From Patescibacteria group bacterium (GTDB lineage: Bacteria; Patescibacteriota; Minisyncoccia; Phycocordibacterales; SBAW01), in the NCBI GenBank assembly GCA_028866155.1, contig JAGWIT010000004.1:1-39947 (forward strand): DNA of 39,947 nucleotides, in the 5' to 3' direction. Under the pieces are notes generated by a model. It was not told the DNA's origin, searched no databases, and worked only from the letters and a program-made list of their open reading frames with translations. Position numbers and translations under genes: made by a program. This document shows positions 11,535 to 14,553 of this stretch, piece by piece; within the stretch, counting starts at the first letter, position 1, and the number at the start of each line of letters is the position of its first letter.

Positions 11535-12119
11535 TCACTCGGCGGCTTCGGATAGACTTTCGGCCTCTTTCACCACTATCGTCCACCGGTTGGTCGAAAG
11601 ATTGCAGTTAAGCCGCTCATCGCGACCCGAGGGCCTAATGGTGAACTTCTCGGTTTGCGTTATGTTCACTCCCTCGATGCTTTTGGCAACATCTTGATCT
11701 GCGAGCAGTGCCTCCTTGTTCACCTCTTCTTTGACGCGGATAAACCGCTCAAGCTTCAGCGTTTTAAGCCGCTTCACAATAGTCTCGGCTTTTTCGGCAA
11801 GCTCGACCGCAGGCGGCGAGGTCGACCACGCCACGATCCCGCCGCTTTGCAGTGTCGCGCTCTTGCGCCCCGGTTCGAGTATCTCCTCACGATGCTCTTC
11901 GGCAAAAGCGCGGATAGCCTTGGCTATCTCACGGACTTCAGCGGTGTACTCTTTTATCTTTTTCTCCGCTGCCGTTTCGAACTGTTTTATAGCAAGCGCT
12001 GCATCGAGTCGGCATTGTTCCGACCGCGAAAGCAGGGTGCCGAGCCGGCGATCGAGCTGTGCCGCCTCGAACATCGACTTGGGCGGCGGCACTCGCTTGG
12101 GCCGTTGTTTTTTGGCCAT
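11535..12119 (-). CDS. Mu Gam-like DNA-end-binding protein (host-nuclease inhibitor family)
   Basis: 194 aa. A basic N-terminus (MAKKQRPKRVPPPKS) is followed by a long charged helical section (about residues 20-80), then TLQSGGIVAWSTSPPAVELAE, KTLKLERFIRVKEEVNKEALL and EGVNITQTEKFTIRPS, the order seen in phage Mu Gam (PF07352-type). Mu Gam is a Ku-like protein that coats double-stranded ends and blocks exonucleases. No other phage genes are present. It is divergent from a PIF1-like helicase through an intergenic dyad and close to a LexA-like gene, suggesting a chromosomal end-protection role. AGGAG lies 6 nt before the ATG, unlike most genes here, which hints at transfer. Confidence 0.82.
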   Translation of the reverse strand: MAKKQRPKRVPPPKSMFEAAQLDRRLGTLLSRSEQCRLDAALAIKQFETAAEKKIKEYTAEVREIAKAIRAFAEEHREEILEPGRKSATLQSGGIVAWSTSPPAVELAEKAETIVKRLKTLKLERFIRVKEEVNKEALLADQDVAKSIEGVNITQTEKFTIRPSGRDERLNCNLSTNRWTIVVKEAESLSEAAE

Positions 12120-12156
12120 AACAAACTCCTATTTTGTGCGTTGCTCCAGCCTCCAG

Positions 12157-12187
12157 TATACCAAAATTGGTGTAAAAAATTGGTGTA
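12157..12187. promoter_or_regulatory. Putative operator in the gam / helicase divergent region
   Basis: TATACCAAAATTGGTGTA (12157-12174) is an imperfect palindrome (14 of 18 positions symmetric). The half-site AATTGGTGTA is repeated directly at 12165-12174 and 12178-12187, just before the helicase -10 box TACTAT (12191-12196). A related CTGGTGTA lies upstream of the LexA-like gene. Confidence 0.5.
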
Positions 12188-12202
12188 CGGTACTATGTCC
12201 CG

Positions 12203-13795
12203 ATGACCCAGGCCGAGGCTCTCACCATTCTTAAAACCGGCGCGAATGTTTTTTTGACCGGTGAGCCGGGCGCGGGCAAGTCGCACACCGTCAACGAGTT
12301 TGTTGCGCGGCTCCGGCAACATGGCATCGAGCCGGCCATCACCGCCTCAACCGGCATTGCGGCGACACACATCGGCGGGATGACCATCCACTCGTGGTGC
12401 GGCATCGGCATCAAGCGCACGCTCAATCAATATGACCTCGATCGTATAGCCTCGAGTGAGCACGTGGTCAAGCGGATGCGGCGCACCAAAATTTTAATCA
12501 TCGACGAAGTGTCCATGCTTTCTCCCGACACGCTGTCGATGGTCGACGCCGTGTGCCGCGAAGTATTGGGCTCCTCTCGCGCATTCGGCGGCCTGCAAAT
12601 TATTTTTGTCGGCGATTTCTTTCAATTGCCACCAATCGTAAAAAGGCAAGAGGCACAGCAGTCAGACAGCGGCCTCTCTTTTGATTCACTTGAAGACTCG
12701 CGCCCAAGGTTTGCCTACGACTCCGACGCGTGGGCGCACGCCAACCCGGTGGTGTGCTACCTGACCGAACAGCACCGCCAAGACGATAAAATCTTTCTCG
12801 ATATTCTCTCGGCCATTAGGCGCAACTCTTTTGGCGAGGAGCATCTCGAGCATATAGAGGCGCGCAAAGTGTCGCGCGGCAAGCAAGTGGCGGGAGCGAC
12901 AAAACTTTTTTCGCACAACGCCGACGTTGACCGCCTCAACGATGAAACTCTCGGCAATATAGCAGGCACGCCAAAAAGTTTTGTCATGCAGTCTCAGGGT
13001 GCGCCGTCTATAGTCGCCGCGCTCATCAAAAGCTGTCTCTCGCCCGAAGCGCTCTTCCTCAAAGTAGGCGCGTCGGTGATGTTCACCAAAAATAATCCTA
13101 AAGAAGGCTACGTCAACGGCACGCTCGGTACCGTTGTGTCGTTTAATTCGTTCAACAGCTATCCGACGGTTGAGACGCGCGCGGGGCGCATGATAGAGGT
13201 CGAGCCGATGGATTGGACAGTCGAGGAGGGCGGCAAAATTCGCGCGCGCATAACCCAGCTGCCGCTTCGCTTGGCGTGGGCTATTACGGTCCACAAGAGC
13301 CAGGGGATGTCGCTCGATGAAGCGGTGATGGATTTAAGCGATGTGTTCGAGTTCGGCCAAGGATACGTTGCGCTCTCCCGCGTCCGGCGCCTCTCGGGTT
13401 TGCACTTGCTGGGGTGGAACAAGCGCACGTTTGAGGTGCATCCCGAGGTGTTAGCCAAGGATGAGCAATTTCGCGAGGCGTCCGAGGAGGCCGCCGAGGC
13501 GTTTGAGAAAATTGGCGCGGACGAGTTGCGTAAGATGCAGGAGAATTTTATTAAAGCGTGCGGTGGGCGGGTCGAGAAAGTTGAGCGCACTCCAAAAACT
13601 ACTGGTCGACTCGCACAGATTAGAGAGGCACACCCCAACGCCTATCGCCCGTGGGACGAGGCGCAGGACAAACAGCTCACGACACTGTTTCAAAACGGCA
13701 TACCACAAAAAGAAATCTCAAAAACCCTGGGCCGACAAAGCGGGTCAATCAGGGCACGGCTCATCAAGCTTGGGCTTATCGAAGAAGTGGCTTAA
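12203..13795 (+). CDS. PIF1-like DNA helicase with C-terminal helix-turn-helix
   Basis: 530 aa, superfamily 1B. Walker A is GEPGAGKS (20-27), motif Ia STGIAATHIGGMTIHSW (49-65), Walker B ILIIDEVSML (97-106). Late motifs are VHKSQGMSLDEAVMDL and GYVALSRVRRLSGLHLLGW. The family unwinds DNA 5' to 3' and clears forks, G-quadruplexes or RNA-DNA hybrids. The last 50 residues (YRPWDEAQDKQLTTLFQNG and IPQKEISKTLGRQSGSIRAR) form a Myb/SANT-like HTH, a likely DNA-targeting add-on. The -10 box TACTAT (12191-12196) ends 6 nt before the ATG, so the mRNA is probably leaderless. Neighbours suggest DNA repair. Confidence 0.92.
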   Translation: MTQAEALTILKTGANVFLTGEPGAGKSHTVNEFVARLRQHGIEPAITASTGIAATHIGGMTIHSWCGIGIKRTLNQYDLDRIASSEHVVKRMRRTKILIIDEVSMLSPDTLSMVDAVCREVLGSSRAFGGLQIIFVGDFFQLPPIVKRQEAQQSDSGLSFDSLEDSRPRFAYDSDAWAHANPVVCYLTEQHRQDDKIFLDILSAIRRNSFGEEHLEHIEARKVSRGKQVAGATKLFSHNADVDRLNDETLGNIAGTPKSFVMQSQGAPSIVAALIKSCLSPEALFLKVGASVMFTKNNPKEGYVNGTLGTVVSFNSFNSYPTVETRAGRMIEVEPMDWTVEEGGKIRARITQLPLRLAWAITVHKSQGMSLDEAVMDLSDVFEFGQGYVALSRVRRLSGLHLLGWNKRTFEVHPEVLAKDEQFREASEEAAEAFEKIGADELRKMQENFIKACGGRVEKVERTPKTTGRLAQIREAHPNAYRPWDEAQDKQLTTLFQNGIPQKEISKTLGRQSGSIRARLIKLGLIEEVA

Positions 13796-13813
13796 CCACA
13801 AGGCAGTGAGGGG

Positions 13814-13822
13814 TTATCCACA
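13814..13822 (+). promoter_or_regulatory. Consensus DnaA box
   Basis: TTATCCACA matches the 9-mer consensus exactly. It is a single copy 83 bp before the LexA-like gene, too isolated for an origin. It might be a DnaA regulatory site or chance. Confidence 0.4.
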
Positions 13823-13859
13823 AACTGGTGTATTGTGTGTATTGTAGCATAAAACTGTG

Positions 13860-13868
13860 TGCTAGAAT
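13860..13868 (+). promoter_or_regulatory. Extended -10 promoter of the lexA-like gene
   Basis: TGCTAGAAT fits TGn-TAnnnT. Upstream lie GGTGTATTG and TGTGTATTG repeats (about 13827-13845) that may contain the repressor site. No canonical E. coli- or Bacillus-type SOS box is present. Confidence 0.55.
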
Positions 13869-13896
13869 ATACATATATCAATAATTTATAAACTCT

Positions 13897-14553
13897 ATGC
13901 AACAACTGCTCACCTACAAGCAAAAGCGTGTGCTCGACAACATTCGTTTATATATGGAGGCCAAGGGTGAGCCGCCTACACTCGAGGAGTTGAGCCGCAA
14001 TCTCGGCCTGCGTTCTGTCCGCACCGTGGTCCAATATCTCGAGATCCTCGAAAACAAGGGTTATATCCTGAGGCGCAAGAACGCGTGGCGCAATATAGAA
14101 TTGCGCAACGCTGACGGTGCGTGGGGCACTGTCTCCATCCCCGTGGTGGCCAACGTCGGCTGCGACGACCTCTCGGTCTTTGCGCAGGAACAGCACGATG
14201 AGTTTATTGAAGTCGACAAAAAGATAGTCGAAGAGAGCGGAGAAATAGTCGCCGTGCGCGCGGTGGGCGATTCGATGCTCGACGCCGGCATCAAGAGCGG
14301 CGACTACATCTTGGTGCAGTTTACCGACAATGTCCAGAACGGCGACCGTGTCGCGGCGATAGTGGGCGACATGGTCACGGTCAAGCGCCTCGAGCGCCGC
14401 GACGGTGTCACCATCCTCTATCCCGAAAACAAAGACCCAAAGTACAAGCCGATAATCTTAAGAGAAGACTTCAAAATCACCGGTAAAGTGTTGTGCGTCA
14501 TCCCGGCCGAGTCAACGATAACTAACGAGGTGGTGCCTATAAGGGAAGAATAA
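13897..14553 (+). CDS. lexA: LexA-like S24 repressor with a changed self-cleavage site
   Basis: 218 aa. An N-terminal winged helix (PTLEELSRNLGLRSVRTVVQ, then YLEILENKGYILRR) is followed by an S24 protease domain with Ser126 in VGDSMLDAGIKSGDYILV and Lys163 in MVTVKRLER. This is the complete LexA catalytic dyad. In the cleavage loop, IPVVANVGCDD replaces the usual IPVxGxVAAG, so the scissile Ala-Gly aligns with Cys89-Asp90. UmuD uses Cys-Gly, but Asp at P1' is unusual, so RecA-stimulated self-cleavage may be slow, absent or shifted. It probably represses DNA-damage genes including itself. It sits downstream of the PIF1-like helicase but has its own extended -10 promoter. Confidence 0.92.
   Translation: MQQLLTYKQKRVLDNIRLYMEAKGEPPTLEELSRNLGLRSVRTVVQYLEILENKGYILRRKNAWRNIELRNADGAWGTVSIPVVANVGCDDLSVFAQEQHDEFIEVDKKIVEESGEIVAVRAVGDSMLDAGIKSGDYILVQFTDNVQNGDRVAAIVGDMVTVKRLERRDGVTILYPENKDPKYKPIILREDFKITGKVLCVIPAESTITNEVVPIREE

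What the first reader, a model, noticed from the sequence alone, without database searches (positions are those of the whole stretch)
11535..14553. Possible DNA-damage module: Mu Gam-like protein, PIF1-like helicase with HTH, and LexA-like repressor
A Ku-like end-binding protein, a helicase and a damage repressor are neighbours. The half-site TTGGTGTA occurs twice in the gam/helicase intergenic region (12165-12174, 12178-12187) and a related CTGGTGTA occurs upstream of lexA (about 13825-13833). No canonical SOS box is present, so this may be the operator of a divergent SOS regulon. Gam without any other phage gene suggests a domesticated end-protection or repair system.
Basis: inference. Interest (0 to 1): 0.7.

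Follow-up and report, generated by a model that had tools for sequence, protein, structure and literature searches.

The report
LexA–Pif1 locus with odd LexA
In a tiny-genome bacterium, three neighbouring genes (an end-binding Gam protein, a Pif1-type helicase and the damage repressor LexA) are real but are not one co-regulated set: only LexA and the helicase recur together in relatives, LexA has its own nine-base tandem-repeat control site, and LexA carries at its self-cutting site the residue that in E. coli makes it uncuttable.

Summary
The three genes (Gam, Pif1 helicase, LexA) and the TTGGTGTA repeats are confirmed; the three-gene regulon is not. (1) CTGGTGTA before lexA is half of the true operator, TTGTGTATnTTGTGTATT, a direct repeat of period 9 found before all 30 sampled lexA genes of this type in the genus; the window site scores 25.5 (reference sites 18–31). 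(2) The gam/helicase repeat has period 13, scores as background (−4.1) and is absent before helicase relatives, so LexA binding there is unlikely. (3) recA lacks the site (0/30); rarA has a strong one in 2/28. (4) lexA and the helicase are neighbours in ten relatives and here, with at least three changes of linkage on the helicase tree. (5) Gam beside the helicase was seen only here; Patescibacteria-type Gam is a solitary chromosomal gene. Most surprising: all 30 such LexA proteins have Cys–Asp in place of the Ala/Cys–Gly scissile bond, the same change as E. coli lexA3 (G85D, non-cleavable), yet keep the Ser/Lys dyad. A DnaA-box-like TTATCCACA lies beside the operator (17/30 exact, 29/30 within one mismatch). 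The published Patescibacteria LexA study could not be read, so the operator may already be known.

The parts
11535..12119 (-). gam: Mu Gam-like protein of the Patescibacteria type, 194 aa; judged not part of the LexA unit
   Evidence: PF07352 2.5e-23, PHROG 491 1.2e-28; profile matches 2p2u, a Gam structure
12155..12160 (-). probable gam -10 hexamer TATACT
   Evidence: read from the sequence; inference
12157..12187 (.). repeat region of the divergent promoter: inverted TATACCAA 12157-12164, then TTGGTGTA 12167-12174 and 12180-12187 (12-bp direct repeat, period 13); binder unknown, not a LexA operator by matrix score
12191..12196 (+). probable helicase -10 hexamer TACTAT, 6 nt before the ATG (leaderless start likely)
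   Evidence: read from the sequence; similar layout in many orthologues; inference
12203..13795 (+). Pif1-family helicase, 530 aa, with an HTH/Myb-like C-terminal extension
   Evidence: PF05970, PF21530; PIF1 structures; extension compared
13814..13822 (+). TTATCCACA, DnaA-box-like element conserved before genus lexA operators
13826..13843 (+). LexA operator TGGTGTATTGTGTGTATT (direct repeat, period 9)
   Evidence: matrix score 25.5; next best place in the window 8.5
13897..14553 (+). lexA, 218 aa
   Evidence: TIGR00498 2.3e-43, PF01726, PF00717
14161..14166 (+). codons of Cys89-Asp90, aligned with the E. coli LexA scissile bond Ala84-Gly85
14272..14274 (+). codon of catalytic Ser126 (E. coli Ser119)
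14383..14385 (+). codon of catalytic Lys163 (E. coli Lys156)

Best explanation
The locus is a lexA-pif1 neighbourhood of a Patescibacteria-like genome beside an unrelated solitary gam gene. LexA represses its own promoter through a period-9 direct repeat (TTGTGTATnTTGTGTATT). In several relatives the pif1 helicase follows lexA, often behind msrB, and so can share that promoter; here pif1 lies upstream of lexA with its own, probably leaderless, promoter and no LexA site, so it is probably not under LexA control. Shown by comparison: the operator and its conservation, the linkage, and the absence of the site before recA and before gam/pif1. Inferred: that LexA binds this operator, that Pif1 acts on stalled or damaged forks, that Gam binds broken ends, and that another factor (or none) uses the TTGGTGTA repeats. 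Release of LexA may be atypical, because the usual scissile bond is Cys-Asp instead of Ala-Gly.
For: Operator before 30 genus lexA genes (29 by automatic alignment, G003 by eye), score 25.5 here, best matches in 35 genomes mostly at lexA; strong sites with the same 9-bp spacing before rarA in two genomes; recA 0/30; gam/pif1 region scores -4.1 against a background median of -4.3; repeats not conserved before helicase orthologues; pif1 62-2108 bp after lexA in ten genomes with at least three changes on the helicase tree; Gam solitary among other genes in 15 loci.
Against: No binding or expression data. TGGTGTA is shared exactly by the first lexA half-site and by the gam/pif1 repeats. The first half of the operator in this genome deviates from consensus (TGGTGTAT). 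Part of the lexA-pif1 linkage could be inherited gene order, since msrB, DUF5652, DoxX and other genes recur around lexA as well.
Confidence: 0.7

Rival explanations
1. One reading: gam, pif1 and lexA form one DNA-damage module, and LexA binds the TTGGTGTA repeats of the gam/pif1 promoter with an alternative spacing of 13 bp.
For: Half-site TGGTGTA shared exactly; both repeats are the two longest direct repeats among 21 intergenic regions; a published direct-repeat LexA motif in Balneolaeota, TTACACATATTTTWTACATA, appears to have a 13-bp period when read by eye (PMC7739468).
Against: The 9-bp spacing is constant in the genus lexA operators and in the rarA sites; the region scores as background; the repeat is not conserved; gam next to pif1 was seen in this genome only.
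Confidence: 0.12
2. Gam and the divergent repeat are a relic of a mobile element: the repeat is the operator of a lost phage or transposon regulator, and gam sits beside a RAYT/IS200-like transposase.
For: An IS200-like transposase lies just downstream of gam (10773-11510); Gam is rare and patchy; the repeat is specific to this locus.
Against: CPR Gams are separated from phage Gams (80/86); no phage gene among 17 window proteins scanned; Gam stands among other chromosomal genes in the other CPR loci.
Confidence: 0.15
3. lexA-pif1 linkage has no regulatory meaning and is only inherited gene order in a conserved block.
For: msrB, DUF5652, cyclophilin, DUF218, DoxX and ZIP-like genes also recur around lexA; linkage was seen only within the genus.
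Against: Linked helicases lie in separate well-supported clades, and the window helicase belongs to another clade and lies on the other side of lexA.
Confidence: 0.35

Closest known systems
LexA repressors of the SOS response (E. coli LexA, 1jhh/1jhf; TIGR00498)
   Same: LexA DNA-binding and S24 domains, Ser-Lys dyad, autoregulated promoter
   Different: Operator is a period-9 direct repeat rather than a palindrome; scissile Ala-Gly replaced by Cys-Asp; recA has no site
Direct-repeat LexA operators (Balneolaeota, TTACACATATTTTWTACATA, PMC7739468)
   Same: Direct repeat with TGTGTA-like halves when read on the other strand
   Different: Spacing: 9 bp here
Patescibacteria LexA network (Sanchez-Osuna et al. 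2017, 10.1111/1462-2920.13826)
   Same: Same broad group and question; may already report this operator
   Different: Could not be read here, so neither the motif nor the cleavage site could be compared
Non-cleavable LexA mutants lexA3/G85D (PMC6363387; 1jhf) and P. aeruginosa G91D (8b0v)
   Same: Asp at the position after the scissile bond
   Different: Here it is natural, invariant in 30 proteins, and set in a loop with one extra residue
Mu Gam end-protection proteins (PF07352, 2p2u)
   Same: Full-length profile match
   Different: Solitary chromosomal gene, separate from phage Gams in the tree
Pif1 family helicases (6hpt, 5fhd)
   Same: Helicase core including the 2B domain
   Different: HTH/Myb-like C-terminal extension in some; recurrent lexA neighbour

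Membership tests
LexA (SOS repressor) | LexA DNA-binding domain joined to an S24 peptidase domain | tested here: met
   PF01726 5e-15, PF00717 1e-22, TIGR00498 above cut-off
LexA (SOS repressor) | Ser-Lys catalytic dyad | tested here: met
   Ser126 and Lys163 invariant
[quoted passage not shown]
   Cys89-Asp90 at the aligned position in 30/30 genus proteins; the determinants are those named in PMC8565304
LexA (SOS repressor) | Operator in its own promoter | tested here: met
   Conserved direct repeat before 30 lexA genes; binding itself not testable
LexA (SOS repressor) | Control of recA and other damage genes | tested here: not met
   recA 0/30; strong rarA site in 2/28; no Y-family polymerase found in this genome
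LexA (SOS repressor) | RecA-stimulated self-cleavage | not testable with these tools
   needs purified protein
Mu Gam-like end protection | Gam fold and profile over most of its length | tested here: met
   PF07352 positions 10-149 of 149; 2p2u profile match 6.6e-23
Mu Gam-like end protection | Binding of DNA ends, block of exonuclease | not testable with these tools
   needs an assay
Mu Gam-like end protection | Location in a Mu-like phage or prophage | tested here: not met
   no phage neighbours here or in 15 other loci
Pif1 helicase | SF1B core with Pif1 and 2B domains | tested here: met
   PF05970 and PF21530 over cut-off; PIF1 structures 4e-65

The most novel reading that the evidence does not exclude
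This lineage has a naturally lexA3-like LexA: with Asp after the usual cut point it is not cut at the canonical bond, so it is either cut at a shifted bond (for example Val87-Gly88) or is not RecA-inducible and is relieved in another way, for example through DnaA bound at the adjacent conserved DnaA-box-like site, tying lexA expression to replication state.
Probability: 0.3. Interest if true: 0.7.

Novelty: new variant of a known kind. Interest (0 to 1): 0.45.

Why it matters
If the Cys-Asp bond cannot be cut, these reduced-genome bacteria keep a LexA that cannot do what defines LexA, which makes the minimal role of LexA testable with one purified protein. The operator gives a probe for the damage regulon of a largely uncultured group, and the solitary Gam genes are candidates for a domesticated Ku-like end-binding protein.

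Tried and rejected
LexA matrix scan of the gam/helicase region: background, rejected as a LexA operator. The double TTGGTGTA repeat elsewhere in the genome: no second exact copy, next best has 2 mismatches. The G000:C21 site (2 mismatches) lies inside coding sequence, and G000:C49:1782 (3 mismatches, with TTATCCATA before it) has no clear downstream gene. The G004 site lies 105 bp after recA, not before it. TTATCCACA as a third, inverted LexA half-site: disfavoured, because the spacer varies from 4 to 7 bp and the box, in the other orientation, also precedes more distant lexA genes of the Ala-Gly type. The 2017 Patescibacteria LexA paper is not held. The AlphaFold model of LexA (pLDDT 75, pTM 0.56) confirms the fold, but residues 91-99 next to the scissile position are below pLDDT 50, so it cannot decide the cleavage register.

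Full report
WHAT IS THERE. The three genes are as described: Gam on the minus strand, a Pif1-family helicase divergent from it, and LexA downstream of the helicase. The motifs are at the stated places. No canonical SOS box occurs in the window.

THE LEXA OPERATOR. Thirty lexA genes of the genus share, within about 100 bp before their start, the direct repeat TTGTGTATnTTGTGTATT with a period of 9 bp. One of them, G003, has a weaker form that the automatic alignment missed (CAAGTGTATCCGAGTGTATT, read by eye). A matrix of the other 29 gives the window site TGGTGTATTGTGTGTATT (13826-13843) 25.5 bits, within the range of the sites (18.4-31.5), while nothing else in the 40-kb window exceeds 8.5. In 35 genus genomes nearly all matches with 0-1 mismatch lie before lexA. 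Other targets are few: the rarA promoters of G009 and G031 carry TTGTGTACCTTGTGTA next to the start, G021 has a weaker site, and most of the 28 rarA genes have none; recA has none in 30; Y-family polymerases were found in only 4 of 35 genomes, not in this one.

THE GAM/HELICASE REPEAT. AAAATTGGTGTA occurs twice with a period of 13, preceded by an inverted TATACCAA (together 12157-12187), over the likely -10 and spacer regions of both divergent promoters. A 12-bp direct repeat is unexpected in 83 bp (P about 0.001), so it is probably real, but by spacing and score it is not a LexA operator (-4.1 against a background median of -4.3). Helicase orthologues lack it and often show a TATA-like hexamer a few bases before the ATG, suggesting leaderless transcripts. 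What binds it, if anything, is unknown.

LEXA AND PIF1. The helicase follows lexA on the same strand within 62-2108 bp in ten genomes, in several with msrB between. In the window it precedes lexA. On the helicase tree the linked members fall in separate well-supported clades, requiring at least three changes, and G011 has a fragment 87% identical to the window helicase 80 bp after its lexA. The nearest full-length relatives, G006 and G021, are not linked (13.6 kb apart in G006; no lexA hit in G021) and have another gene in gam's place. Other genes around lexA also recur, so part of the linkage may be inherited order.

GAM. Only 2 of 60 near relatives and 18 of 384 genomes of the class have a Gam match. 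In the 15 loci read, the neighbours look, from their sequences, like ribosomal-protein, chaperone, gyrase, release-factor and other ordinary chromosomal genes, with no phage, lexA or pif1 neighbour recognised. CPR Gams lie on the other side of a branch from 24 phage/prophage Gams (80/86; 82% of bootstrap trees); the window's own place is unresolved. Between close CPR pairs dN is 0.11-0.18 where dS is about 0.5-2.5, consistent with purifying selection. This supports a resident, non-phage Gam in Patescibacteria, but not membership in a LexA module.

AN UNUSUAL LEXA. All 30 genus LexA proteins with this operator share V-G-C-D at the cleavage loop. Two alignments made in different ways place Cys89-Asp90 on E. 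coli Ala84-Gly85. In E. coli G85D is lexA3(Ind-), described as non-cleavable (PMC6363387), and 1jhf is that mutant. [quoted passage not shown] here only the dyad is kept. The second LexA-like protein of this genome (contig C39) and the other LexA types examined keep Cys-Gly or Ala-Gly. Either cleavage has moved, for example to Val87-Gly88, or this LexA is not inducible in the usual way. No experiment decides this here.

A DNAA BOX. TTATCCACA, the DnaA-box consensus (own knowledge), lies just before the operator: exact in 17 and within one mismatch in 29 of 30 lexA promoters, against 0 exact for three control words. It occurs 16 times in the genome against 4 for the reversed control. The spacer to the operator varies from 4 to 7 bp, and more distant lexA genes of the order with Ala-Gly LexA carry it, or a one-mismatch form, in the other orientation, so it looks like a separate element.

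VERDICT. Novelty rests mainly on the LexA cleavage site and on the operator/DnaA-box arrangement, with the reservation that the published Patescibacteria LexA study was not available.

Noticed in passing
window 14152-14175 (LexA residues 86-93): Natural Cys-Asp at the LexA scissile position in all 30 genus proteins with the direct-repeat operator, equivalent to E. coli lexA3 G85D, with the Ser-Lys dyad kept.
   Followed up: partly
window 13814-13822: DnaA-box-like TTATCCACA conserved directly before the lexA operator across the genus.
   Followed up: partly
L150:16-630 (G000:C39:16-630): A second LexA/S24 protein of this genome with a canonical Cys-Gly site, at a contig edge, so its promoter cannot be read.
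   Followed up: partly
window 10773-11510: IS200/RAYT-like transposase gene just downstream of gam on the same strand; another similar gene lies on contig C20 (L043).
   Followed up: no
window 14658-15053: A 131-aa SET-domain protein (PF00856 9e-24) next to lexA, an uncommon domain for bacteria.
   Followed up: no
L048:1460-1560 (G000:C49): TTATCCATA followed by GTGTGTGTTGTGTAT, resembling the lexA promoter layout, with no clear gene downstream.
   Followed up: partly
window 12191-12203 and helicase orthologues: -10-like hexamers only a few bases before the ATG in many genomes suggest leaderless transcription of pif1.
   Followed up: no
L135-L149: Solitary chromosomal Gam genes in about 5% of the sampled genomes of the class, apart from phage Gams in the tree: candidate domesticated end-binding proteins.
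   Followed up: partly
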